Both the position numbers and the translations under genes were made by a program. 64,000 nucleotides of DNA from Limnoperna fortunei (lineage: Eukaryota > Mollusca > Bivalvia > Mytilida > Modiolidae). The stretch is taken from the NCBI GenBank assembly GCA_944474755.1, contig OX104115.1, positions 72,950,993-73,014,992 of the forward strand. The letters are read 5' to 3'. Within the stretch, counting starts at the first letter, position 1; each line of letters opens with the position of its first letter. The notes beneath the pieces were generated by a model. It was not told the origin of the DNA. It did no database searches and worked only from the letters and a program-made list of their open reading frames with translations. Shown one piece after another: positions 2,721 to 51,807 of this stretch.

Positions 2721-4835
2721 CGAAGGGAATTACACAATAGTGTACATTTTTTCAATATACATGACCAAAACACTAAATTTAATCTACTTACTTAATAGAA
2801 GATACTTTCCGTTTAGAATGTGGATTTCAGTATAAAAACGTATTTCCTCAAAGTATACGAGTCAATAAATCCTTCAAATCCCAGATTGAAGCACGTGACC
2901 ACCCCTCCCCCTTATTTGTAAATTTCGTCTGCTGTGATTTCAGTTATCGTCAGTGAATCATAGTGTAAATCGTTTCTCAACAAGTTGTTCTAACTATCCG
3001 AACTGCATTTTACCTCACATTTTAATCAAATTGAAACAATTTCCGACGTGAATTTTTGTGTATTCGGTCGTCTGCTACGTGACTCGTGTCATTATTTTCC
3101 AGCGTAAAATTCATATGAAATAATGTGAAAACGTCTTTAAATAATCGTCGGCATACTCCGTTTATAATAATCCGTGTCGTCCTGAAATAAATAATCACTG
3201 AGATTAAAGATCGTGCTTTATGTAATATATGTCCACACAGAACGAGAGAGACAGAAGACGCTGACAAAATGCTATGAACGCGAGCTTTGACGAAGACACC
3301 TCAGTGAAATGTAAAGTGTTCATTTAATGTGTTACTATAAATAGAGCGAAATGACTAAGAAGTATTTATTTCACACCAAAATAATGTATATGAATTTTTA
3401 AAACTAGTTTAACAAATTTTTGTCACAATATTTAAATCTGCAGAGTCCCATTTTTCCGTTGTTTCTCAAAATTAGTGCAAAGCTATTTCTAAATCAATGT
3501 GAGACAATCAATTAAAAATACCAAGATGTATAACAAAATAAGTTTACATGCTGGCCCTGGTTGGGGGGCCGGGCCCTTTTTCTAATAATTAGAATGTTAT
3601 AGAAACAATAGAAAAGAAACCGGGGGAAGGAGGAGGTCTACGGGTATTTTACAATATAAAATAATAGATTTTTACCCTCTGGGGCTTATTGTTTGACATT
3701 TAACGTCAGTTTTTTCTATGGAAATAGGGACAATGCGGGAAAGACCTTCGCATTTGTTCTCGGAACAAATGTCTTTTTAATATTATTCATTTAATTGTGC
3801 ACATACACGAACATGACATTTTTGGAAATCTGCATTGTTTAATAATGCATGTATATTAATTCACATTTGATCATAATGTGGCAGGGTTGAAGTTGAACTG
3901 GTTAATGGGGTCCAAACTACCCATTTATTGCAAAACCCCAAAAGAAGCCATGCATAAATTTATTAATTAAAGACTCTTGCTGAGTTAAGTGATTATAGTT
4001 GGGTCTTAAGTGCTGGCATAAACAATCAATTAAGTCTTTAAGAGAAAAACCAAAAATTGTTCACATTCACAGCTGTTAAATTACAGAATCAATGCAATCC
4101 GTCAGAGCTTTTTGCTTCCCGGGGCTCTAATGTCATTCATGGCCATATTATTTCTTATCATACATGTAATAAACCTGTTTTATTTGAATTTTTATAATAA
4201 TATGAGAGACAAATTCTACAAAATTTGATAAGCGTTTTGAAAAACGACAAAATTATAAAATTTCCCTGTTGAGCAATAAAGTCTTATTAAAATATACCAA
4301 TTATTTTTCTTGTTGTTAATGGCCCACAACTTGATATATTCTATATTAATCTTATCTGCACCCTAAACTTTAAACATGTTACAAATTGAAATATAAACTG
4401 TATGCAAATTAATATTTATTAGACTCAGGTACCTTTTTCCATTTACATTCATTATGAGTATAAACATAATAATACTAGTCTGGTGTCCAACTTTCTGTGA
4501 ATTTTATTTATCATCAAATTAAATTCTTTCTTCTACATACATGTAAGAAGAAGAAAATGAATTAATTTACACATACTTGATCTTATGGCTAGATAAAAGA
4601 CTTTTTCTATTTATCTGTTCGGTATTTATAAGATAAAAGAAATAAATATCAATATAGAATTAATGTATAATGCAATTTATCTGAGCCCTCTTGTCACTCT
4701 ACAATCTGTTTATTTTATTATTTCTACATATATCTGACATGTCCAAGTGGAATCCTAATAACTGGTCAGAGAAATAAAATACAACTGTTCAAATGAAAAT
4801 GTGAAATATTTATCTTAGTTTACGTTGTTGAATAA
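2721..4835. other. AT-rich non-coding stretch
   Basis: I find no convincing gene or complete repeat here. A perfect 9-bp hairpin (CATTTGTTC, loop tcg, GAACAAATG) lies near 3748-3768, and a short GC-rich patch lies near 3552-3580. Short open frames such as 3022-3267 (minus) have no recognisable domain. Confidence 0.5.
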
Positions 4836-6562
4836 TAGTAATAATAATAATAATAAGATAAGATAAGATAAGACAACTTTATTTGAATTCGGCATGACAT
4901 TACTAACAAATAACATAAGCTCTACAGAGCTTTTGACCGAATAAATACATTATAAGACATTACAACAATACAAACAGCAATTAAGATACAATCAGCAGAA
5001 TAAAACAAGCAAGTTAGTGGTTATAAGCACTATGACATAAAATAAGCAGGTTAAGATATGAGGACTAAGCACAAGTTACAAGATACATTCACAGTAAAAA
5101 ATTACATAAAATCAGCTGGTTTACATATAAGCACAACTAAAAAGGATATAGAATTAAAAGTAGTAAAACTGCTTTGCACATAATATGTAATATGTAAAAT
5201 CAGCTGATTACCATATAAGCACTGGCATGCATAAAAAATTATAGTACATAATTAAAATGATTTTTTACATGTTAACATGTGATATGTAAAGCAACACAAA
5301 GTACAGAGCATTTACTAAAATATAAAAGCAATGGCAACAATCAGATGAATTTGATTAAAAGGAGGATATTGTCAAAATTCAGAAAGCATATATGGTTATT
5401 TGCAAATGGAGCAGCGCCATTCTTTACCACTCCAGGACTGAATTAAACTTTTAAATTGAGAGAAACTGTTTTCAGTCCTGAAGTGATCGGGAAGATTATT
5501 CCAAAGCATAGCAGCAGCAAATTTGAATGATATTTTACCATACCTTGTGGTTTTTACCATGGGGACATCCAAAATGTTGCTATATCTGAAAGAATATTTC
5601 GAGTTTTTTGAATTAACAAGGTTATGAAGACAAGAGGGAGATAACTTATTAACAATTTTAAACGTTTCTAAAGCCATAGTTCGCATTCTTCTAATCTGTG
5701 AGGAAGGCACGTTAGCTTTTAATAACAGTTCATTATAGGAACTACTGAAGTCATTATAAATAAAAAGGAGTGCTCTTTCTTGCACTTTTTCAATTTTTCT
5801 TGAATTCTTTCTGTACAGAAATGCCATACCAAAGGGCAAAAATTAAAATTACTTAAAATAGTAAGTTTACTTAACCTGTTTAAATATGAACCCAAACGTT
5901 TAAGGATATTTAGTTGCTGGGAAGCCTTCCTACAGATTGTACTTATATGCATATCAAAGTTATATTGGTAATCTACATCAATACCAAGTTATCTTACAGT
6001 ATTTTCACAGGAAAGATCAAAGTCTTGAATATGAAGAATTGGCTTCTTTTCATTTGTTTTCTTACCCACTGCCAGAACCTGAAATTTATCTGGATTGGCC
6101 TGCATTTTATTAATTTTAAACCATTCTATAAGCCTATTTGAGTCTGTTTCCAGAGTGGAGATAAGTTTATCAAAGTCAGGACTGCAAAATGATAGTGTGT
6201 TATCATCTGCGTAATTGTAAAGTGAGCTGTTCTTGACAAAAAAGAAAATGTCGTTCAGGAAAATATTAAATAGTAGGGGTCCGAGTATAGATCCTTGTGG
6301 GACACCTTTATGGATGTCAGCCCAACTACTGAGTACATTATTGGCAGCTATATACTGGTTTCTGTCCAAAGCTTCACGCCAGTCCTCTAATAACCTGAGT
6401 AGTGTGGTCTGGCAACCATGCCCACGCCTAAAAGCACAAAGATATGGGTTAAATATATATTCCAAAAAATCTGATAATTGACATTATATTACTTTTTCAT
6501 AAATTTTAGAAAAAATGGATAACACGCTTACTGGTCGATAGTTGGTTTTGTTTAAGGGATCA
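4836..6562 (-). mobile_element. LINE copy A (jockey/CR1-like), 5'-truncated
   Basis: This is a minus-strand non-LTR retrotransposon. Its 3' end is a microsatellite tail (ATT/ATA repeats then TTATC repeats on the minus strand) at 4836-4873, followed by a 3' untranslated region with loose subrepeats up to about 5395. The coding remnant runs from about 6560 down to 5396. The 5' end is cut off inside reverse transcriptase, the usual result of incomplete reverse transcription. It abuts directly the ATT-rich 3' tail of a second copy. Confidence 0.85.
5396..6562 (-). pseudogene. Reverse transcriptase fragment of LINE copy A
   Basis: Read on the minus strand this shows NYRPVSVL (RT motif 1), GHGCQTT, KGVPQGSILGPLLFN, NYADDN (the catalytic YADD of motif C) and then the C-terminal domain with NFCPLVWHF. 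About 50 residues with the first catalytic Asp (the LSKAFD motif of this family) are deleted between QYIAA and NNVLSSW near 6345. One in-frame stop (TAA near 5990, after ENTVR) and a frameshift near 5830 also break it. It cannot encode an active enzyme. The family is very common in bivalves; I assign it to the jockey/CR1 group from motif style only. Confidence 0.85.
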
Positions 6563-7803
6563 TTAATAATAATAATAATAATAAGCTCTATGTTACGTCG
6601 GCATGGTAAAACAACATAGCAACACAAGCTCTAATGAGCTTTTGAGCGACTAATAACATAATAAATACAGAAAATATACAAAGCCTACACTAACACAATA
6701 TCAAAAGTGAATGGCATAGCATATTTAAGCACACAATTAAAAGAGATATACATAGTAATTTAAAGAGTCACAATTAATGGAAAAACAAGGTTTATGTGTA
6801 TATAAGCACTAAGTAAAAAGAAGAGTTGTAAACATAAAGTTAAAAGAGGCAATCATAACATATAAAGACATAATTAAAAAGACAAGCAGAGCATAGATAG
6901 AGTTATAAAATAAGAGACAAGCAAACAACACATAAGCACGCAGCACAAATTCATTTAAAGCACTAGTGTTATACAAATTGTATATATATAAAACTAAAAC
7001 TAAAAGGACACACAGATGGAATAAGAGTAAGCTATGCATGGTAGAAGGAAGGCATGAGAGTTTTAATTAGTATTATTATTGCCCACAAAAATGACAATCA
7101 CAATTTTTCCCATCCCAGGATTTCAAAATATTTTTAAAACTGATTCACATTTCCAATTTGTCTAAAATGCTCAGGTAATTCATTCCGTTATACAACTGCT
7201 GAGTCTATAAAACTGTTCTTTCAATAAGTAGAAGTATTGACTCGAGGTATATCTAAAATATTTGAATATCGCAAATTATATCTACAGTTTTTAAAAACTA
7301 TGAGATCATGTAAGCATGACGGTGAAAACTTGTACAATATTTACAACCTTCAAATACATTATTTCGCATCCGCCTTATCGTAAACTATGGTACCCTGGCT
7401 CTACCTAACATGTCGTCATAAGACATACTGTAGTCATCATATATAAAAAAAGTAGAGCCCTCTTTTGTATCTTTTCTAACGTGTCATTGTTTTTCTTACT
7501 ACAGAAATGCCTAGCTAGTGGACAAAAACTAAAATGTGATAAAATAAAATATGAAAAATTGTGAATTGATTAGTTTAGACAAATAATAGCCAATGCTCTT
7601 TAATACACCGAGTTGCTGAGATGCTTCATGTCAAATATTTTTAATATGACAGTCAAAGTTAAGTTTATAATCGATATCAACACCTTATAATTTTACAACT
7701 TCGTCACAAGAGATAGTTGTGACTCAATATTGAAAATATGCTTTTCGTTGCAAGTTTTAGTGCCGACTGCAATTGCCTGAAATTTGTCCGGATTTGCCTG
7801 CAT

Positions 7804-8240
7804 TCAGTTTTGTTTAAACCAGTTTATTAATATTGTGCTCTCATTAACCAGTATTGTAATCAAATAATCATAATTATCATTAGAATATGACAGTTTGTTA
7901 TCGTCTGCATAATTATATAATACACCATATTCAATAAAGTAGAATATGTTATTAATAAAAATATTTAATAACAAGGGTCCAAAAATTGATCCCCGGGGAA
8001 CACCTTTCTTGATGTCAGCCCAATGGCTCAAAGCTTCCTGACGTGTAATCTGTTGCTTACGGCCAGATACGTAATTCTGTAGTAATTTGATTGACTTTTA
8101 AGAAAGGCCATAGTCAGATAGTTTGCAAAGAAGCATATCATGTGGCAGACAGTCGAAAGCCTTTGAAAGGTCCATAAGTATAGCTGCCATTTATTTGTTA
8201 CTGTCCAGTGCCAATTTCCATTCTTCAAGAGCCTGAGCAA
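7804..8240 (-). pseudogene. Reverse transcriptase fragment of LINE copy B
   Basis: Two minus-strand open pieces (7804-8031 and 8028-8240) together carry the RT palm region: WADIKKGVPRGSIFGPLL, then NYADDNKLSY with the catalytic YADD. Frameshifts and a deletion separate them, as in copy A. The C-terminal portion (about 7080-7560) is further decayed. Confidence 0.75.
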
Positions 8241-8495
8241 TGTTGTCTGACATGCATGACCTATCCTGAAAGCACATAAACAGTGGTGAAATAAATTATC
8301 AAAAAGTCGGAGAGTTGTTCGGATATAACCAATTCCAAAACCTTAGATATTGTTGGTAGTATGCTGACTGGTATATATAGTTTGCTTTGTCAAGAGGGTC
8401 ATTCTTTTTGTAAAGTGGAACAACGTGTGTTTCTTTAAGCCGAGATGGAAATAATCCATTATTGATTATAAAGTTAACTAGTGAAGTTACATGAG

Positions 8496-12040: not shown

Positions 12041-12056
12041 TCCATAAAAACATAAA

Positions 12057-13264
12057 AATTCCCAGCAAAGTCAGCGTTTAATACTCCATTTAGACAATGT
12101 GAGTTTACTATCATGGTGTTTGGTCTAAAAACTGCGCTGTCCACATTCGCACGCTTGATTGATGGAGTTGCTGGTGATTTAATACACGTACCAGCGTATT
12201 TTGATGATATAATTGTCAACAGTGGTTCATTCGAGAAGCATATCGAATATTTATGGTCCGTATTTGGAAGGTTACGTGAAGCAAATCTTACTGAACGTCC
12301 GTCTAAATGTGAGCTAGGGTGTTCTGTAATACATTGTCTGGGGCATATCGTTGGAAGTGGAATGGTAAAGCCGAATCCAACTAAAGTAAAAGCTATGACG
12401 GAATTCCCGTTACCGATAAATAAGAACGGACTGAAATCATTTTTGGGACTTATTGGATACTATCGTAGATACATTAGGAACTTTTCGTCAATCTCACAGA
12501 CGCTTTCCGATTTTCTACAAAAGAAAAAGGCGAACGTTATTAATTGGACTGATTATGAAATCAAAGCTTTCAATGAGTTGACGGATGCTATGGTCCGTGC
12601 TCTGGTTTTGAGAAATCCGGACTTTACAAAGGAATTTATACTACAAACAGATGCGTCGAACTATGCCGTGGGAGCTGTTCTGAGTCAATTATTCGAAGTG
12701 GAAAAGCATACAGTTGCCTTTCTGAGCAGGAAGTTATTGCCGAGAGAAAGAAATTATTCCGTCGTTGAAAAGGAATATTGGTCAATCGTGTGGAATACAA
12801 TCTTTAAAGTACTTTCTTTCTGTGCATACATTCGTCATTTAAACTGATAATAATCCATTAACTTGGCTCCAGAAAATGAACGATAAGAATCAGAGGTTGA
12901 TAAGATGGGCATTGACCTAACGATGGTCTAACAGATGCGTAGGACTATGCCGTGGGAGCTGTTCTGAGTCAATTATTCGAAGTGGAAAAGCATACAATTG
13001 CCTTTCTGAGCAGGAAGTTATTGCCGAGAGAAAGAAATTATTGCGTCGTTGAAAAGGAATATTTGTCAATCGTGTGGAATGTAATCTTTAAAGTACTTTC
13101 TTTCTGTGCATACATTCGTCATTTAAACTGATAATAATCCATTAACTTGGCTCCAGAAAATGAACGATAAGAATCAGAGGTTGATAAGATGGGCATTGAC
13201 CTAACGATGGTCTAACGTAAAGGGTCAGCCAACAAAAATACCGATGGACTGTCAAGAATTTAAC
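12057..13264 (+). pseudogene. Gypsy RT-RNase H fragment with 284-bp tandem duplication
   Basis: The open part (ATG at 12113, stop at 12847) has YFDD at residues 29-32 (the YxDD of RT motif C), then PSKCELG, FLGLIGYYRRYI (thumb/connection) and LQTDASN (first RNase H Asp, residue 180). Codons upstream of the ATG (from about 12057, NTPFRQCEFTI) extend the RT domain, so the ATG is internal. After RHLN a frameshift leaves NNPLTWLQKMNDKNQRL in another frame. The segment 12649-12932 is then repeated almost exactly at 12933-13216 and the trace closes with KGSANKNTDGLSRI and a stop near 13262. The protein is dead. Confidence 0.85.
12649..13216 (+). repeat. 284-bp direct tandem duplication
   Basis: Two adjacent copies (12649-12932 and 12933-13216) differ at only a few bases, for example tcgaac/taggac and ttccgtcg/ttgcgtcg. 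The junction falls at the shared word acagatgcgt. Both copies carry the same frameshift, so the duplication happened after the element had died. Confidence 0.9.
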
Positions 13265-19627: not shown

Positions 19628-20330
19628 AGCTCACCTAACCCAAAGGGCAAACCTTTTCAATGGCTTCTTCTCTGTAACTGGTTAACCAATCAAAACAAAA
19701 CTTACTACCAATGATGCGTGGATGGTCCTCTATAACGTTTATGTTTTTTATGCCAACTGCAAATTCAAAATGGCCGCCACCGCAGGACTTAGTTTTACAT
19801 AGGACCCTATAGGCAAAGGTTTTAAATGGCTTCTTTTCTAAAAACCGGTTTACCAATGGAAACAAAACTTACTAGCAATATTGTTTGGATGGTCCTCTAT
19901 AAAGTTTATGTTTTTTATGCCAATTGGAAATTCAAAATGGCTGCCACCACAGGACTTAGTTTAACATAGGATCCTATGGGAAACAGTTTTACATAGCTTC
20001 TTCTCTAAAACCGGTTAACCAACAGAAACAATACTTACCGGCAATATTGTTTGGATGGTCCTCTTCGAAGTTTATGTTTTTTATACCAATAAGAAAATAA
20101 AAAATGGCCGCCACCGCATAACTTAGTTTAACATAGGTCTCTATGGGAATTTTTTTTTCATCTTCTCTGAAACTAGTTAACCAACGGAAACAAAACTTAC
20201 TAGCAATATTGTTTGGATGGTCCTCTTTAAAATTTTTTGAAAATTACAAGACCTAGTTTAACTTCAGGGAAATGCCATCGTCATTGCCTATAAAATCAGG
20301 TGAGCGATATAGGCTCTTAAGAGCCTCTGG
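19628..20330 (+). mobile_element. Helitron-like non-autonomous element with ~166-bp tandem core
   Basis: Four head-to-tail units (the last truncated) carry the word gatggtcctc at 19721, 19888, 20054 and 20216, a period of 162-167 bp. The ends are inverted to each other (CTCACCT at 19630-19636, AGGTGAG at 20298-20304). The right end then has a perfect 16-bp palindrome AGGCTCTTAAGAGCCT (20311-20326) followed by CTGG (20327-20330), which fits the hairpin plus CTRR terminus of Helitrons. No Rep/helicase is present. Bivalves carry many such tandem-core, Helentron-derived elements; membership is inference. Confidence 0.6.
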
Positions 20331-29390: not shown

Positions 29391-29393
29391 AAT

Positions 29394-29848
29394 CACTATG
29401 AACCCAAATAAGGACTGACATTACCATACACAGTTCAAATTTGATTGATAGAAACTGATAGTGACTGTAAATCACAGTATAAAATTCATACAGTTCACGT
29501 CAGTCATTTACAATTTTTACCCTTTACTGATTGCTTCTGTCCTGAACTGAAACAGTTCATGACAGTTAAGTACAGTACTTTTGTAGGACCGAAAAGAACT
29601 GTTAGTCACTTTATCAGATCGTGACAGTACTTTTAAATATTTACCTGGATTTAGAATGACTGACATTCACTGTAGCAGTCCTTGACAGTGATTATCAATA
29701 TTTACCTGTATTTAGAATGACCGATAATCACTTTAGCAGTCTTTGTCAGTCATCATCGGTTCTTACCTTGATTTAGTATAACTGATGTTCACTGTAGCAG
29801 TCCTTGACAGTCATTATCAGTTCTTACCTTGATTTAGTATGACTTTCT
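29394..29848 (+). repeat. Left terminal inverted repeat of CACTA element
   Basis: The outer 230 bases are unique and contain the outermost CACTA. The inner part holds four 61-bp direct units marked by ttacctNNatttagNatNa at 29641, 29702, 29763 and 29824. It matches the right end 33845-34467 in reverse complement, apart from a short gap near 29475. Confidence 0.85.
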
Positions 29849-30007
29849 CTTCTGTACCATTTTATATATAGTCATTTGTAAACAAAGTCCAACAGTGAAG
29901 ACTTGATTAAATGGGAGTTTAATGGATAAAAAATAGGAAATGTGTCAAATTACCGGAATAAGAAGCCACCTAACGTTACACCTGTACATATTTCTAATAA
30001 ATTCCAC

Positions 30008-30384
30008 AGAGCTGCCCAGCGCATCCACCAGTTGAACAGGGGATGCCTTCTAGTTAAGGGTGGGCAGGTAATAATACGGAAAGCCGGACCACCGTGAGTA
30101 ACATGTTTGGAGAGTGCCACGCTCCTTGCATGATGTAGACTTTTTTGTAGATGTCAAAAAGTGTAGGCTCGTTGTATCCGCCACAAAAGGCTAAGTTTTC
30201 CGCCCGCAATAACTAAACCCCATACTTTTCAAGTGGCATTCACAATTTTTGTTCTTTTGGTCTATCTTTCTCGAATTAATTGTTGTTAACATGTTCTAGT
30301 CCTGAATAAAGCTGAAATTATGCTCACTGGATGTTAAGCAAATATCCAACCAGTCAATCAATCAATCAATCAATCAATCATTCA
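30008..30384 (+). repeat. Short interspersed repeat family 2, full copy with (AATC)n tail
   Basis: The copy starts ccacagagctgcccagcgca and ends with a run of AATC/TCAA tetranucleotides at 30350-30380. That places its 3' tail at the right and defines plus as its natural orientation. An aataaagctgaa word precedes the tail. The tetranucleotide tail and sharp 5' start suggest a SINE or other target-primed element. I do not see convincing tRNA promoter boxes. Confidence 0.7.
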
Positions 30385-31865
30385 AGCATCGTATCCTCTG
30401 GACCAACATTATTGTTGGACATGCGCCTTTTTGATACCGGAAGATATTTATTCCACAATACTTTGTAAATTTCCAAGATTTGTGTAAGAATTTTGTTTTA
30501 AAATAAATTAAAGAGGTTTTAGTTGGGAATTGTCTCTTTAAATAATTACAAAAGTTATAATTTTGGGAAGCATATTTTGTATACTCCTAATTTACAAATA
30601 TATTTAAGACAAACTAAACAATTGTTGTAGTTTTAATCCTTATAAAATTTTTAAGGTGTGGGTTGGGTCATTATAATATCGTGATTTTATTTCAAAAATT
30701 AAATGAACAATTATATTTCCGACATGTTGATAATACCAGTCATGCCAGTGAACACAGATGATCAAGTTCCAGCTGTGACAGGATGTTATTTACATCTAAA
30801 TGTATATTGCATTTATATATATGTGTTTCATCTCCAGCAGTGTTATGTAGCACCTGTGTTTATCTGTTTTTGTCTTTTCTGTACTTAACTTTACAAATTA
30901 AATCACAAAAGAGAACTAACTAAATTGAAACATTGGTTGTTTTTGTTGTTTTTTCTATTTTTTGTTGTTGTTGTTGTTGTTTATTTTTACACTACAAAGG
31001 ATTGAACTGTGAAATTGTAGAGTCACTTCATAGTTTTTTTTATAAAATCATATTAGTTTTTAATTGTCTATATGCTTCAGTTTAGTAAATAAGGTTTAAA
31101 CTAGGAAACACTGTAGTCACTGCAAACGCTTTTTAAAATAAAATCTTTTTTTTAGTTTTGTTTATATGCATCTGAAGGAAAATAAATGTGTGCATCGCCA
31201 CGGGAATATGCCGATTGTAAGCAATGACACGTTCTGTCAGTTAGGGAACAGGTAATTGTGCGCAATCATCAGGAATAAGAATTCCGATTCACCAATTTTA
31301 TAATTTAATACATAGATTTGCAGTGATGAAAGTTTCTAGTAACATTAGAACGTTCTATCCTCCACGTTTTTGTAAATATCCGACAATGGCATTTAGCGTT
31401 GTAAAAGTAAATTAATATCTATTGTCGAAGTATGCCAAACTATATTTAAAATTGCACGCTTCCAAATCTTTACAGACAACAACAGGAGAATCGCCGACCC
31501 TGGTTAAGTGCCGTACAAACTTGAATTTGAATCGATTGCACCATTTCTTTTCACAATGCAGTCAAGCACAAATCAATGCCTCCGCATGTTAAGAGAGAAT
31601 TTAGTTAGAAAAACATCTCGGCTACTCATCCACTCTTGAAAAGTAACAATAATATACAAGGATTCAAATGAGACGAAAATTGAAAAACATGTAAAGATTG
31701 CAATAATTCTCCGAATCAATAAAACGCAAGTCATATTTCCAAACAACAAAAATTTGAGCAATTTAACGCGTTGTTAATACACGTAACACATTATTTACAC
31801 TAAAGTTTACCATGAGTTAAGATATTTTATTATTTGGAAAACAAATGTTTTCTTGTTTGAAGTTA
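30385..31865. other. Interior of CACTA element, no features
   Basis: The stretch is AT-rich with a (TTG)n microsatellite near 30962-30982. No transposase motifs or exons are seen on either strand. Confidence 0.45.
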
Positions 31866-31985
31866 TACGCCACTGTTAGCATTTTTTCGTCCAATTTTTA
31901 ATGGAAGAAGAAGCCAGAGAACTAGTGATAGCTCATACCCACAACTTTTCGGCAAGAAAAGAGATGAAGTCGAGCATGCCCTTAA
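31866..31985 (-). repeat. SINE relic, tail and body only
   Basis: The reverse complement of the SINE tail (acgccactgttagcattttt) and body (ggaagaagaagcc, gtcgagcatgccct) is visible but heavily mutated. Confidence 0.55.
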
Positions 31986-33001
31986 AGCTATTTAAGCCGT
32001 AATATAGCTATTACTTTCAGTAACTTGTTTTAACATTGAAGAGAAAGTTTTTTGCACGGTATTAGTATAATTTCTTCACTGTCCTCTGGTTATTTTATTT
32101 AATTAGTCCTTCAATGTGTCTTGTATTTCTATGATATATTTTTATAAATTTTAATACAAATAAAATAAGCAGGGGGCTTTTTATCGTTATGAACTAGAAA
32201 GTTCGTTGGAAATACGTTAAAGTAATTTTATTGAAGTGATTGTTATTACGCATAAACTTGGTTTCCAATTTTAAGTATCTGGCAGGTGTTTGAAAATGTG
32301 TCGTGTTCGTGTAGCTACCTGGGGTGCAAAGGTAAACTAGAGATGTTGATTGTTAATTTGTTTATTGTAACAACCACACACAAACGATGATAACGTGTTA
32401 CTTTGAAGTGATTTTATTTAAGTTTTATAACAAATTTATATCTTGATAATTACTTTTAATTCGGAGTAACGATGTCGTACGTGCAGGATAATATTTGATT
32501 GATGAAAAGGTGGAGTAGATACATGTATTTCTTGAGATTAATAGTAAACCTTCATTTGTTGGGGGAAGTCAATTGTAAAAACGTCTGATGTTCACAAAGA
32601 AAAATGTCTTTCGTATATATTTCATTATTTTGATAAAATGACATAGGATATACTAGCTAATATTCTGGATAAAAGTTATAATTTCAAATCAATTTGAATG
32701 CACACGGTCATATTTAAAATTCTAAAAAATATACCAAGTTGTGGTTTAATTACTAATAAACATAGATTAACAAATAAAAATGTCTCCTTTTTTAGAAATA
32801 CATGTATGTACACATTTATCCCATCGGCTTAAAATCATACATTACATAGGTATGAACTTATTAGTCCCTCGTTCATGCAATTGTACACAAATGTAGCTGT
32901 TAATGTTTTTTGTATCTGTATCTCTTCTGCTATAAATATTTTTTCCATAATTTGTATATACATTTATAACAAAAGGCGAATTTATATCTGGTTTAGTGTT
33001 T
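31986..33001. other. Interior of CACTA element, no features
   Basis: AT-rich sequence without a supported gene or repeat. Confidence 0.45.
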
Positions 33002-33269
33002 GGGGGCCTCCGTGGCTGAGTGGTTAAGGTAGTTCGTCTACTATTGATCACGTGGTCTGTCCATACTGAAGTTGCGGGTTTCATTCTGCGGGCAGGTTGC
33101 GCTCGACTCCAATCTTAATTGACAATGATTGCCAGTTTTCCCACCGAAGGTCGGGAGTTTTCTCCCGATACACCGGCTTCTTCCCCAAATATAAAAATCG
33201 GACGCCATGATATAGCTGAAATATTACTGAAAGTTGCGTTAAATAACATTCAAACAAACGAAAACAAAC
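33002..33269 (+). repeat. tRNA-derived SINE, full-length copy
   Basis: Head ggggcctccgtggctgagtg (box A), box B region gcgggtttcattctgcgg (mutated), body with cgggagttttctcccgatac, and tail tgaaagttgcgttaaataac followed by CAAA-rich sequence. It is inserted inside the CACTA element. Confidence 0.88.
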
Positions 33270-33451
33270 TATTCAGTGTTCTATTTATTATCTATTTCAA
33301 TTCAGCCTATATATATACTGCTCATATATGATCATGTTCCCAATGACGATGTCAGTAAAAAAGCTCATGAAAGAGATTTACTTTGCGTATAACCACACAA
33401 ATATTAAACAAAGTTCTTTTTATTTTCCTGATGTTCTCATATTGAATTGAA

Positions 33452-33680
33452 GGGGCCTCGGTGGCCGAGTGGTTAAAGTAGTTCCTCTACTATTGATCAC
33501 GTGGTCAGTCAATACTGAGATTGCGGGTTCGATTCTCACTGCGGGCAGGTGCTTCCTTCTGAAGGTCCGGAGTTTTCTCCAGGTACTCCGGCTTCCACTC
33601 CCAATAAAAACTGAACGCCATGATATAGCTGAAAAATTGTCGAAAGTGGCGTTAAACACCATTCAAACCAACGAACAAAC
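33452..33680 (+). repeat. tRNA-derived SINE with internal deletion
   Basis: The head ggggcctcggtggccgagtg and box B gcgggttcgattctcactgc are well preserved. About 45 bases between the head and gaaggtccggagttttctcc are missing. It ends aaaccaacgaacaaac and lies close to, and in line with, the copy at 33002. Confidence 0.88.
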
Positions 33681-33844
33681 ATATTTACTAGTGACAATAT
33701 TGTGACTTTAAAAAAAAACACCCTTCAACGCAATATTAGTGTTAATGTTCATGTGAAAAGCTGTCATACATTGATGCATTTTTTACAACTTTTGTAAAAA
33801 CATAGTTTGCTAGGCTAAAATAAAAACAAAAGTTCAAATATCAG

Positions 33845-34467
33845 TTATTCTAAATCAAGGAAAATATTGCCAATCCCTGCTACAGTGAACATCAGTCATA
33901 CTAAATCAAGGTAAGAACAGATGATGACTGGCAGAGCTGCTACATTGAACATCAGTCATTCTAAATCAAGGTAAGAACTGTTGCAGCGATTATCAGTCAT
34001 TCGAAATCGAAGTGAATATTGATGATCACTGTCCAGGACTGCTACAGTGAACATCAGTCATTCTAAATCAAGGTAAGAACTGATAATGACTGACAAGGAC
34101 TGCTACAGTGATTATCAGTCATTCTAAATACAGGTAAATATTGATAATCACTGTCAAGGACTGATACAGTGAATGTCAGTCATTCTAAATCCAGGTAAAA
34201 ATTTAAAAGTACTGTCAAGATCTGATGCAGTGACTAACAGTTCTTTTCAATCCTACAAAAGTACTGTACTTAACTGTCATGAACTGTTTCAGTTCAGGAC
34301 AGAAGCAATCAGTAAAAGATAAAAATTGTAAATGACTGACGTGAACTGTATGAATTGTACACAGTGATTTACAGATCGTGAACAGTAAATTTACAGTCAC
34401 TATCAGTTTCTATCAATCAAATTTGAACTGTGTATGGTAATGTCAGTCCTTATTTTGGTTCATAGTG
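33845..34467 (-). repeat. Right terminal inverted repeat of CACTA element
   Basis: Read in reverse complement, this repeats the left end base for base over long stretches and then continues with more subrepeat units (about seven against four). Unit-number difference accounts for the longer arm. The outermost bases are TAGTG at 34463-34467. Confidence 0.85.
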
Positions 34468-34470
34468 AAT

Positions 34471-36164
34471 TATAGACCACATTATCGAGGCAGTAGGAAA
34501 CGCCTTTCAACAATTCAACAATTTTCTTACTATGGCGTAAAATGGTCTAAAAAGTTTGGAGAATGTCTCGAAGAGTGCGAATGATTATCTTGTATAATTT
34601 TATATGTAAACAGCTATATCTTTTTAAAAGTAAAATAACCGTACCATGAACTTATCCCACTATTAAGCGACATAATTCGATCGATTTAATAATCATGACA
34701 ATTTACTGGCACCTTATATCATTTATAGTTTGCGCCCACTGGAAAAATATGGAGTTGCACATTTATACAGAAATATTATTCGTTGTTATTAAAAATACAT
34801 GTATTTTGTTTAAGTTATGATAAAGATATATTTTTAATTAATTAATTGATGAGCCCAATGACCTGGTCTATTAGATACCAACTTTGAGTTCAATTTAAAC
34901 ATACACTGTGTAATTTTGTTTGTTCACTTCTGAAATAAAATTAGTTCTAGACTCTAAATTCTTTACTAACAAATCAAATAAAAACATTTTTCATGTTTAA
35001 ATAAAAAATTATGACATTTAATAAAACATTAATCTTAACTTTAGCAACAGATAAATTGCAAATTAAACACTGTTGTGAAATGTTTTTAATAAGCAATACT
35101 AACCAGACAATATAAATGTTTCTGATCAAACTTCAAAACTGCATTTACCAATAATCATGTACTATGCTTCTAAATGTCATGATGGCGTACTTGTCAATAT
35201 TTTAACAAAACATGTCTTTAACTGGTACAGTTACGTTTTATAACCAACTGAAAAACGATAAATTGAGATGAAAAGTTTCACGTGAAGACGCATTTTTAAT
35301 GCCCTTACGACCAATTATAAGACCAATTTCACTCTGACAAGGGGGTCTGATTGTAGAATGCATAATTACACAACCAAGGACAGTCGAAAACATAACCCCT
35401 TTTTAGGTGATTATCACTAACTTAACGTAAATACTATCACGCTGCAGGATATTCTAACAAAACAACACATATATTTTAGTAATGCACTATTATCTGACAA
35501 AAATATATGTTATATCATTTTATTAAAACAAAATTGATGACCGAGTACATGTTCTGCTAAAATCTAACGGTTTAAAAGGACGAACACATGCGCTGGCAAT
35601 ATTTTCCACACAAAAACTATTATTAACATTGATCATATGTTGCCGATTTGTTTACCTTAACCTTTATAAATATTTAAGAGAAAAATGTAAGATAACTCGT
35701 CTGGCATCAATACAAAACTAAACAGGAAAAACACGAACCATAAGTGAATACAGAATCTATAGACAAATAAGCAGTGCGTGTCTCCCATTAGAATTAGCCC
35801 AGGTACTTGGTAGAAAACGTACGTTTATCAAAAATAAAATCTTATCATTTTTTTAGATAGAGATGTTGATGGTCATACGGTTTGCAAAAGGACTGATATT
35901 AACCTGGGTACAACAAATCCTTGTTTAAGTAGCGTATTTCAGCGTCCGGTCTTGAAAACAGAATACTAATAGCAAAATCTATTATAATGTTATAGCTGTA
36001 AAATGTCTGCATCATACGCCGGCTTAATATGGTACGGGTAGTTGTATTGTCTTTTTCTATTTTACATAAAACATCAGCAGTTGACCTAATTGTGAGTCTG
36101 CATAGTTTCGACAACGGATGATTTTTTTTAACTAGATATCAGTGAGATGGTACCCCTCTCTGTT
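34471..36164. other. Non-coding stretch
   Basis: Nothing supported is present. The minus-strand frame 35899-36114 has no known domain. Confidence 0.45.
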
Positions 36165-36860
36165 GGCCCCGTCGACCTTGAGGTCAAGGTCAAAGGTTAT
36201 CAACCAAGGTATGTGACACATCCCCTTGATATTATCTCCCCACATTCCATATATCAAAAGCCTACATCGAAATATAAAAATAAATTACAGCCCGGACATG
36301 AATTTGTCATTCAGAAAGCGATAATGTAACCTTAAGGTCAACGGTCAAGGTCAAAGGTCAACAACTACGGTATGCGACACATCGCCTTGATATGATCTAC
36401 CAACATTCCAAAAATCAAAAGCCTACCTCAAAAGATTAAAACGTTACAGTCTGCACATGAATTTGTCATTCAGAAAGCAATAACATGACCTTAAAGTTAA
36501 AGTTTAAGGTGACAGGTCAGCAACCACGGTATGTGACAAATCGCCTTGATATTATCTACCCACTTTCCAAAAATCAAGAGCCTATCTCAAAAGAAAAAAA
36601 GTTACAGCCCGGACATGAATTTGTCATTCAGAAAGCAATAATGTGACCTTAAGGTCAAAGTTCAAGGTCAAAGGTAAACAACCATGGTATGCGACCCATC
36701 ACTTTGATATTATCTACCATCATTCCAAATATCAAAAGCATACCTCAAAAGATAAAAAAAGTTACAGCCCGGACACGATAAGTTTGGACGGAAGGACGGA
36801 CAGACTGAAGTGGTGGGGCCCTAATAATCGACCTGACAACCTTAAAGCAATAATATAAGG
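36165..36860 (+). repeat. Tandem ~159-bp repeat element, pearl-like, with AGGTCA sites
   Basis: Four units share gaatttgtcattcagaaagc (36300, 36459, 36617; the last unit is truncated), a period near 159 bp. Each unit starts with a run of AGGTCA-type words, and the array ends in an ACGG-rich stretch (ggacggaaggacggacagac). A roughly 160-bp core repeated two to four times followed by ACGG microsatellite is the described layout of bivalve pearl elements. The assignment is from memory and is moderate. There is no coding capacity. Confidence 0.7.
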
Positions 36861-49800: not shown

Positions 49801-51807
49801 GGCTATGCATAATTATTGTTTCATTAGAATAAAAATGATCCAGCACAATACACTACTTTATTATCTTTAAAGGTTTGCGGGGACTAATGTTGGCGGCCTT
49901 ACTCGCAGCATTAATGAGTTCATTAACTTCCATCTTAAACAGCGCTTGTTCTATTATGACGATGGACATTTGGAGGCAATTTAGAAAGCATGCATCGCAA
50001 TCAGAGCTCATGATAGTTGGCCGAGTCACTGTTCTAATTCTAGTTGGACTCAGTGTTTTATGGATTCCTGTTCTACAAGAAGCTCAAGGCGGGATGTTCT
50101 GGTTCTATATGCAGTCGATACGATCTTATCTTGTTCCTCCCATGTGTGTCGTTTTTCTTCTTGCTTTGTTCTGGAACAGATTGACAGAACAGGTTTGGTG
50201 TTACCTTTATTGACTAACCTTTTTCAATACAAACCTAGACGACAGAAGAGGAAACAGTAACGTATAAAAGCAAACATGTAATGACACTTATGTGTCTAAT
50301 AAACAATTTACGAATTCACAACTCGTATATAAATTTTGAGCTGTTATTGCTACAAAATACTAACGGTATTTCAGATCCCGACAAATATACTAGTAATAAG
50401 ATCATAAGGAGTCACACGTCTTAATGTACATTTTTCACGTTTTGTGTATAATTTATTAGTACGCTATCAGTGATAAACTGATCACATTGATGTAATCAGG
50501 ATTTTACGCCATTTGGATGTTGCTTTATTGATAACATTCGTTTTTGTTTTAGGGCGCCTTCTGGGGACTAATGCTGAGTTTAGCTGTTGGTGTAATACGA
50601 GCAGTTTTAGATTTTGTATACCCGACACCTGCATGTGGAAGTGAGGAAGAAGATAACAGACTATCCATAACAAAATATGTCGACTTTCTACACTTTGCTG
50701 CAATACTTTCAGTCCTAAGTGCAATATTTATGGTAGTGATTAGTCTTATCACAACGCCCAGACCAACCAGAAAGGTTTGGACTGATTTTAAGGAAATCAC
50801 CAGTTTTTAATCTATTAATTTTTACAAAAGACTAAGCGAAATGTCAGATGCAAATTTTTTTATACATATAATTGTTTTTTCAATAGGATATAAAATAATA
50901 AATAAAAATGTGAAATACAAACATTGGGGCCTCGGTAGCTAAAATGATAGATAGTTAGTCATCTACTAGTGATAACGTGCCTGCCAAAACAGAAATCGCG
51001 TAGCCCTTTCTGCAGGCAGGGTTCACTCGACCATAACCTTAATTAACTGTGATTGCTAAGAAGTATATACATGTACGTATTTTGTACTTTCCGATTTATT
51101 TGTTTTATATAGTTACATCGTGTGACGTGGTGGACTAAAGACGATGTCGATGAGCCTGAATTGTCGTCAGACGAGGAAAGGGAAACGGATGAGCTGCCCG
51201 CTGGTCCTAAAAGAAGCATTTCATCCATAAGTATGTTCTTGTGAAATTATTTAATGAACAATATATGTATTCTAATGTCGCCTCTTTTTAACCTGCTACA
51301 TTTAAGATCCTCTGATTAAAGAACCAGTGCCGCTTACATTAAACACTGTTTAAATTTATTTTTAAAACTTAGTCTTGATTAAAACCTTCTTTCCGTTTTT
51401 GTAAAATGAAATGAAACGTATACTTTCTTATACTGGCAGTTTGATATAGTCTTTTCAATTTCTGTTTGGCGTTTAGATATATTTTCATTTTTCCGGAGTA
51501 AGTAAGATTGGTCATGTTTGACTGTATAGAAATGGATATATAACGCGTATATGTAAATATGTGTTTGAAAATTTTTTCTACGCATTTATTGATTTTAGAT
51601 CAACGGTCGAGGTTTACACGATACTGTATTGATTGGCTTTGTGGAACGACGACTGATTCAAGCAATGTATTGACAAAAGAAGAGAAGCTTGCGTTGCGTG
51701 CTAAAATGACATCTTTAGCAGAAAAGCCACGACATCGAATCATATTAAATGTTTCTGCCATATGTATTTCAACGTTCACAGTCTTTCTTCTTGGGTTTTT
51801 TCATTAA
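40856..51807 (+). CDS. SLC5-family sodium/solute symporter (SGLT-like), 14 coding exons
   Basis: The predicted 644-residue protein is complete from ATG to TAA, close to human SGLT1 (664). SLC5 proteins couple uptake of sugars, inositol or other solutes to the inward sodium gradient across the plasma membrane, through about 14 membrane helices in a LeuT-like fold. Landmarks in order: VAVGIW (helix 1), NRGNVTGYFLAGKTM, ASNIGAPMF (helix 2, substrate/Na2 region), TMPEYLRKRLGGKRI, GGLAAVIYTDTLQS, FRDPSTGDIPW, NWCQDQILVQR, AKGGSLF, FPGMISRILYP, a cysteine-rich outer loop (ACADPEKC to AGCSNIAYP), MSSLTSILNSA (Na2 serines), YMQSIRSYL, LHRVTWW, and a final hydrophobic helix ending GFFH. Asn, Glu, Lys and Gln at known SGLT1 sugar contacts are kept, but the His of GSGHF is Met and the Tyr before WC is Asn. 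Paralogue identity within SLC5 is not resolved. Confidence 0.93.
41385..41565 (+). repeat. SINE relic in intron 1
   Basis: actgcggacatgaagggtgt corresponds to the end of the tRNA-like head. The body (aaccgggtactaagacttct) and tail (taaagtggtgctgaaaggca) follow, heavily mutated. Confidence 0.6.
45504..45850 (-). repeat. Short interspersed repeat family 2, copy in intron 4
   Basis: The GATT repeat at the left (about 45508-45520) is the tail, and the right end gcgctgggcagctctgtggt is the natural 5' end. The middle carries ctttatcgtgcaagtagctt and actctccaaacacgttactc as in the other copies. It is inserted in the symporter intron, antisense to the gene. Confidence 0.75.
50926..51060 (+). repeat. 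SINE head fragment in intron 12
   Basis: ttggggcctcggtagctaaa and the box B side gcaggcagggttcactcgac are recognisable. It stops at gattgctaag, before the rest of the body and tail. Confidence 0.7.

What the first reader, a model, noticed from the sequence alone, without database searches (positions are those of the whole stretch)
29394..34467. 5.07-kb CACTA-type transposon with giant subrepeat-bearing inverted repeats
Exact CACTA...TAGTG termini, a 3-bp AAT duplication on both sides, and 455/620-bp inverted repeats built partly from 61-bp direct units are all visible. The arms are highly similar although the interior has no transposase and has been invaded by at least two full SINEs. The element may be a large non-autonomous family in this genome, with the 61-bp units acting as transposase-binding sites.
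Basis: partly seen in the sequence, partly recalled or inferred. Interest (0 to 1): 0.75.

Follow-up and report, generated by a model that had tools for sequence, protein, structure and literature searches.

The report
Helper-dependent CACTA transposon, hundreds of copies
This is one copy of a protein-less jumping DNA element present hundreds of times in an animal genome, whose long mirror-image ends carry a strikingly regular array of short boxes that probably dock the enzyme that moves it.

Summary
29394-34467 is a transposon with CACTATGA...TCATAGTG ends, an AAT duplication, and inverted arms 93.1% identical over 451 aligned bases. The window's own genome (1.335 Gb) was searchable. The 26-base terminus occurs 423 times (reversed control 0). 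Of 20 copies fetched, 16 have both ends; all 16, and the window copy, have 3-bp duplications exactly at CACTA/TAGTG. Two copies inside tandem arrays give empty sites that fit only a 3-bp duplication. Fifteen copies are 96.1-99.9% alike; two differ at 5 of 5067 bases at unlike sites, so movement was recent.

Corrections: three SINE-like copies, not two, lie inside, and all 17 aligned copies carry them, so they are inherited passengers, not local invaders. The 61-bp unit is not the smallest module: the arms are built of ACTG/CAGT boxes in dyads (ACTG-N6-ACTG-N3-CAGT-N6-CAGT), 1088 exact sites genome-wide against 0 for the control.

Best reading: a helper-dependent CACTA/EnSpm-type family with Foldback-like arms. 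CACTA-type transposase genes exist in the genome (60 places), but none was linked to this family; the helper is unidentified and box function is inferred.

The parts
29394..34467 (.). whole non-autonomous CACTA-type transposon, 5074 bp
   Evidence: matching ends and duplication; family copies of like length with the same ends
29391..29393 (+). target site duplication AAT, left
34468..34470 (+). target site duplication AAT, right
29394..29844 (+). left inverted arm (451 bp; carries a 22-bp deletion after 29464 compared with the majority of 34 arms)
33995..34467 (-). right inverted arm, the 473 bp that align with the left arm
33837..33994 (-). further degraded 61-bp units at the inner side of the right arm
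29598..29844 (+). tandem array of 61-bp units, left; consensus boxes ACTG at 0 and 10, CAGT at 17 and 27 (some lost in single units)
33973..34241 (-). tandem array of 61-bp units, right
29394..29597 (+). outer left arm outside the tandem array, with the same 7/10/17/27-bp box spacings
34242..34467 (-). outer right arm outside the tandem array, with the same box spacings
30004..30388 (+). SINE-like repeat, family A, with (TCAA)n tail; shared by all 17 aligned copies (62% covered in L009)
30389..33002 (.). non-coding core (GC 0.299), 82-98% covered and 89-95% identical in the other 16 copies
33003..33270 (+). SINE-like repeat, family B, copy 1; shared by all 17 aligned copies (54% covered in L023)
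33452..33683 (+). SINE-like repeat, family B, copy 2; shared by all 17 aligned copies

Best explanation
The feature is one member of a non-autonomous cut-and-paste DNA transposon family of the CACTA/EnSpm type, with Foldback-like long arms. Shown: common ends CACTATGA...TCATAGTG, a 3-bp duplication made on insertion, hundreds of termini, recent copies, no coding sequence found, passenger SINEs. Inferred: a transposase made elsewhere in the genome recognises the terminal 20 or so bases, and a DNA-binding domain or partner protein (as TnpA is held to do in maize Spm) sits on the helically spaced ACTG dyads of both arms, pairs the two ends and lets the 5-kb body be moved. The tandem 61-bp units arose by duplicating one dyad module and raise the number of docking sites.
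For: 3-bp duplications at exactly these ends in 16 of 16 two-ended copies plus the window, none with a 4- or 5-bp match; junctions in tandem arrays restored only when exactly 3 bp are removed, 57 of 60 in L022 and 70 of 80 in L026; 423 termini against 0 for the control; near-identical copies at unlike sites: 5 mismatches in 5067, duplications TAT and AAT; boxes 55-56 per kb in the arms against 7.5 per kb in the rest of the window; same box spacings in the outer arms, 12 of 18 and 13 of 18 pairs, 0 of 20,000 random placements as high; box columns better conserved between eight units, 0.961 against 0.842; dyad pattern 1088 against 0 genome-wide; Transposase_21 genes with open frames up to 1014 aa, 60 places; soybean CACTA elements have 3-bp duplications and subterminal repeats thought to be bound by TnpA-like proteins (PMC2613891, passages).
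Against: No helper was linked: 0 of 60 Transposase_21 places lie within 46 kb of the 140 arm or terminus entries listed (some are the same place; only 100 of 423 termini were listed). Box conservation is weak in two tests: across 34 arms 0.990 against 0.982, with 33 of 470 circular shifts as good; between the window's two arms 6 of 114 box columns differ against 25 of 337 others. The spacing set tested was chosen after seeing the whole arms, 5-6 of 18 close pairs do not fit it, and the two outer arms are copies of each other. Many of the 1088 dyads descend from one module by copying, so they are not independent. The long insert of one 14-kb copy encodes an integrase-core frame of another type (PF24764); I read it as a nested element, but did not trace its ends. 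Published animal CACTA (TRC) elements begin CCC with 2-bp duplications (PMC1636069, passages), unlike this one.
Confidence: 0.7

Rival explanations
1. It belongs to another branch of the same clade (Chapaev, Chapaev3 or an undescribed lineage) and is moved by such a transposase; the CACTA letters are shared ancestry or coincidence.
For: Chapaev elements also have CAC...GTG ends and 3-4 bp duplications (PMC4079192, passages); no helper was found here, so the transposase class is not proven.
Against: Chapaev3 duplications are TWA, inserted between A and T; here only 2 of 17 fit TWA (TTA, TAA). For plain Chapaev the passages gave no target rule that I could test.
Confidence: 0.18
2. It is a non-autonomous RAG-like or Transib element: the ends read CACTATG, like a Transib heptamer (recalled).
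For: The terminal heptamer CACTATG was invariant in 34 of 34 arms.
Against: Protostome RAG-like elements invariably have 5-bp duplications and the end consensus CACTWMCAAAC (PMC7204232, passages); here the duplication is 3 bp in 17 of 17 with no 5-bp match, and base 6 is T.
Confidence: 0.02
3. The ACTG boxes are not docking sites; they are left over from how the arms grew by tandem duplication of one module, and only the terminal 20-80 bases matter.
For: Weak excess of box conservation across 34 arms (33 of 470 shifts as good) and no clear excess between the window's arms.
Against: The same 7/10/17/27-bp spacings recur in the outer 204-226 bp that is not part of the tandem array; between units box columns exceed others with only 2 of 61 shifts as good, the unshifted one included.
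Confidence: 0.3
4. The element is a Foldback-type or other element whose inverted arms are joint products of recombination rather than ends of a cut-and-paste unit.
For: Long arms with internal tandem units are the hallmark of Foldback-like elements (PMC3688188, passages).
Against: Precise ends, 3-bp duplications and exact empty sites.
Confidence: 0.03

Closest known systems
CACTA/EnSpm elements of plants (Spm/En, Tgm1, Tgmt* of soybean)
   Same: CACTA ends, 3-bp duplication, direct and inverted short repeats next to the ends (PMC2613891 and PMC8978399, passages)
   Different: Tgmt* has 13-bp inverted ends and asymmetric subterminal repeats (159 bp left, 732 bp right); here the arms are true inverted repeats of about 470 bp and the motif is an ACTG dyad mostly on a 10-bp lattice
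Animal CACTA elements SmTRC1 / TRC, Spongebob
   Same: animal host, CACTA superfamily; SmTRC1 also has a region of tandem repeats
   Different: ends CCC and 2-bp duplications (PMC1636069 and PMC4298943, passages)
Galileo and Foldback elements
   Same: long inverted arms with internal direct units; in Galileo a THAP domain was shown to bind one site near the end and two sites in the repeats (PMC3688188, passages)
   Different: Galileo belongs to the P superfamily; ends and motif differ
Chapaev3
   Same: CAC...GTG ends, 3-bp duplications
   Different: TWA target rule (PMC4079192, passages) not followed here
RAG-like transposons of molluscs
   Same: 5'-CAC ends
   Different: 5-bp duplications and another end consensus (PMC7204232, passages)

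Membership tests
CACTA/EnSpm | ends CACTA...TAGTG | tested here: met
   CACTATGA at 17 of 17 left and TCATAGTG at 17 of 17 right ends
CACTA/EnSpm | 3-bp target duplication without fixed sequence | tested here: met
   17 of 17 copies, 14 different triplets; two empty sites
CACTA/EnSpm | closely spaced direct and inverted short repeats near the ends | tested here: met
CACTA/EnSpm | related CACTA-type transposase acts on these ends | tested here: inconclusive
   Transposase_21 genes exist in the genome (60 places) but none was linked to these ends (partial list of termini)
Animal TRC-type CACTA | CCC ends and 2-bp duplication | tested here: not met
   against PMC1636069 (passages)
Chapaev3 | TWA duplication | tested here: not met
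   2 of 17 against PMC4079192 (passages)
RAG-like / Transib | 5-bp duplication | tested here: not met
   0 of 17 copies match at 5 bp
Foldback-like structure | long inverted arms built partly of tandem direct units | tested here: met
   a structural label shared by several superfamilies, not a family
Foldback-like structure | transposase binds the tandem units | not testable with these tools
   needs protein and DNA

The most novel reading that the evidence does not exclude
The whole arm, not only the 61-bp array, is a helically phased scaffold: about 30 ACTG boxes per 480 bp mostly on a 10-bp lattice, grouped as symmetric four-box dyads, on which a tetramer of a transposon-encoded or domesticated protein builds a long filament-like end complex. 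A CACTA-type system would then have reached, on its own, the multi-site long arms known from Galileo, and could carry a 5-kb cargo with host SINEs at high copy number.
Probability: 0.3. Interest if true: 0.55.

Novelty: new member of a known kind. Interest (0 to 1): 0.36.

Why it matters
Non-autonomous CACTA-type families in animals with the plant-like CACTA end and 3-bp duplication are sparsely described in the passages seen here, and this one was recently mobile. Its arms offer a natural test of why several unrelated transposons evolved long, internally repeated ends: box identity, number and helical phase vary between copies and can be related to copy success. It also shows SINEs being multiplied as passengers of a DNA transposon, which matters when SINE copies are counted or dated. 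The helper gene is an open, answerable question.

Tried and rejected
Two interiors: a first comparison restricted to one strand made the window copy and L009 look unrelated in the core to the other 15 copies; a later comparison showed matches in opposite orientation, and all copies were re-oriented.

Autonomous copy: of 21 facing terminus pairs listed the two longest (9971 and 14038 bp) were fetched. The 10-kb one has no frame above 113 aa and no transposase match in it; the 14-kb one is a family copy with a long insert whose longest frame (195 aa) is an integrase-core domain, PF24764, E 1.4e-24. I read that insert as a nested element of another type; its ends were not traced. A search for the same 20 terminal bases with a different continuation gave four places; two were fetched. 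One of them has polymerase-like frames by eye (L040), but it shares sequence outside its end with the other (L041), so it looks like an old duplicated arm beside unrelated sequence; I do not claim it as the helper. Five more dyad places (1 kb each) gave one ordinary end, one diverged end and three older arms without this end; no helper.

Captured gene: a weak F-box match (E 0.0014, below the cut-off) in one interior frame. Variable columns fall evenly on codon positions (14, 10, 11 of 81 each) and the frame is broken in the window copy, L009 and some others: not a gene.

Viral contigs: the 20-base terminus has 0 matches. Rfam 0 matches and ARAGORN 0 genes in the window.

Dropped rows: 4 of 20 fetched loci (L011, L013, L017, L025) have no second end within 9.5 kb and were left out of the 17-copy tables. 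L016 was uninformative in the empty-site test. One search gave 40 places, the window's own included; 20 of the 39 others were fetched, the best-scoring ones, so the copies seen are not a random sample.

Full report
Observation. The window carries a 5074-bp element at 29394-34467. It starts CACTATGAACC and ends GGTTCATAGTG, with AAT on both sides; no other duplication length from 2 to 10 matches perfectly. The left arm (451 bp) and the right arm (473 bp aligned) agree at 420 of 451 positions, with one 22-bp gap that is a deletion in the left arm. Tandem 61-bp units occupy the inner part of both arms. The terminus has no third hit in the window with up to 3 mismatches and none in 100 shuffles.

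Family. The window is C5:72950993-73014992 of a 1.335-Gb assembly. The left arm has 698 first-look candidates there; 40 were scored and gave 70 alignments at 40 places, the window's own included. The 26-base terminus with up to one mismatch occurs 216 + 207 = 423 times, and the reversed control 0 times. Twenty of the 39 other places, the best-scoring ones, were fetched. Sixteen have both ends, 4817-6998 bp apart, and all sixteen have identical 3-bp duplications exactly outside CACTA and TAGTG; with the window that is 17 of 17, with 14 different triplets, none extending to 4 bp; the triplets are AT-rich (0.80) but include CCG and CTG. The other four (L011, L013, L017, L025) show no second end in the 9.5 kb and were not used further; L017 is interrupted by a long insert and L013 probably too. 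Among the 100 termini that the tool listed, 21 facing pairs span 3.4-14.0 kb with a median of 5054 bp.

Empty sites. Three fetched copies lie in or beside tandem arrays. Joining their flanks in a script, with 0 to 6 bp removed, gives the array sequence back only when exactly 3 bp are removed: L022 57 of 60 (best other length 48), L026 70 of 80 (best other 56). L016 is uninformative, 46-53 of 80 at every length.

Age and structure. After orientation, 15 copies form a group 96.1-99.9% alike; the window copy and L009 form another (94.1% to each other; the window copy is 89.5-90.3% to the first group). L021 and L022 differ at 5 of 5067 aligned bases, lie about 73 kb apart, have duplications TAT and AAT, and their flanks do not match each other, so one is a recent transposition product. 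L024/L028 differ at 21 of 5111. The window copy is thus an older member of a family whose other branch was active recently.

Interior. No stop-to-stop frame of 120 aa or more exists in 16 of the 17 copies; L024 has one of 121 aa. Seven frames of 70-105 aa from the window copy, L009 and L021 showed no transposase domain. Three SINE-like repeats lie inside, related to other copies in the window. The other 16 copies carry all three by alignment: family A at 62-99% coverage, family B copy 1 at 54-99%, copy 2 at 85-97%.

Arms. ACTG/CAGT occurs 25 times in the left arm and 35 times in the right (623 bp), 55-56 per kb, against 7.5 per kb in the rest of the window and 6.75 per kb in the element's interior; 300 dinucleotide shuffles of each arm gave at most 13 and 17. 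In the 61-bp unit the consensus boxes sit at 0 and 10 (ACTG) and at 17 and 27 (CAGT), a symmetric four-box cluster with 10-bp steps. Across eight units, box columns are 0.961 conserved against 0.842 elsewhere (Mann-Whitney p 0.003; 2 of 61 circular shifts as good, one being the unshifted case). The outer arms, which are not part of the tandem array, show the same spacings: 12 of 18 and 13 of 18 close pairs against about 1 expected, 0 of 20,000 random placements. That spacing set was picked after seeing the whole arms, and the two outer arms are copies of each other, so this is one observation, not two. Genome-wide the pattern ACTG-N6-ACTG-N3-CAGT-N6-CAGT occurs at 1088 places and the reversed control at 0; the 100 rows listed look like family units by eye, so the figure measures the family and its old relatives, not independent origin. 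Of 31 consensus boxes in 34 arms, 30 are intact in at least 30 arms and one in 16. Against strong selection on the boxes: across 34 arms the box excess is small (0.990 against 0.982; 33 of 470 shifts as good), and between the window's own arms it is not clear (6 of 114 against 25 of 337).

Arm homogenisation. Arms of one element are no more alike (mean 0.974) than arms of different elements (left-left 0.970, right-right 0.979, left-right 0.970). The arms were made alike before the copies seen here spread and have evolved separately since.

Helper. Transposase_21, the CACTA transposase domain, has 60 matches in the genome, many in long open frames (up to 1014 aa); it is found in 0 of 14 control genomes. 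None lies within 46 kb of the 140 arm or terminus entries that I had coordinates for, some of which are the same place. One search listed only 100 of the 423 termini, so this does not exclude a helper with the same ends. Two long pairs were fetched; neither shows a CACTA-type helper, but the insert of the 14-kb one encodes an integrase-core frame of another type (PF24764), read as a nested element.

Comparison. The duplication length excludes RAG-like elements (invariably 5 bp in protostomes, PMC7204232, passages). The lack of a TWA rule speaks against Chapaev3 (PMC4079192, passages). CCC ends and 2-bp duplications set apart the published animal TRC branch (PMC1636069, passages). Ends, duplication and subterminal repeats fit CACTA as described for soybean and goosefoot (PMC2613891, PMC8978399, passages). 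In design the arms resemble Galileo, where binding of the transposase THAP domain to a site near the end and to sites in the repeats was shown (PMC3688188, passages). A bivalve survey's curated library holds two CMC consensus elements among its DDE transposons (PMC10294476, passages). Nine literature searches (listings with the start of abstracts, apart from the passages named) showed no earlier description of this family that I recognised; Repbase and Dfam could not be searched.

Verdict. A real, recently active, non-autonomous CACTA-type family with Foldback-like arms: a new member of a known kind. The most interesting part is the regular box lattice, whose role is inferred.

Noticed in passing
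L013 (C6:57235547-57245546), minus strand: A family copy whose match stops about 1.1 kb from its end; beyond lie several long frames that look by eye like a Maverick/Polinton-type element. Described only.
   Followed up: no
L017 (C7:74721654-74731653): A family copy interrupted by about 7.5 kb with a 1496-aa open frame that looks by eye like a Pao-type retroelement.
   Followed up: no
L038/L039 (C5:36814400-36828520): A 14-kb family copy whose insert holds an integrase-core frame (PF24764, E 1.4e-24).
   Followed up: partly
L040 (C12:5054700-5059699), about 3294-5000: Frames that look by eye like a type-B DNA polymerase beside an old truncated arm of this family.
   Followed up: partly
L022 and L026 flanks: Copies sit inside tandem arrays of about 30-bp and about 68-bp units, which serve as natural empty sites.
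   Followed up: yes
G000, 60 places: Transposase_21 genes, several as sets of three with equal or nearly equal scores and equal frame lengths (for example 974-aa and 1014-aa frames), suggesting other recently active CACTA families.
   Followed up: no
window 12646-13213: A 284-bp unit directly duplicated at 98% identity.
   Followed up: no
window 36116-36758 and 19640-20235: Tandem arrays of about 160-bp and 167-bp units.
   Followed up: no
window 49839-50213: Frame matching sodium/solute symporter proteins (PF00474), probably a host exon.
   Followed up: partly
window 12056-12847 and 5396-8342: Frames that look by eye like reverse transcriptase pieces.
   Followed up: no
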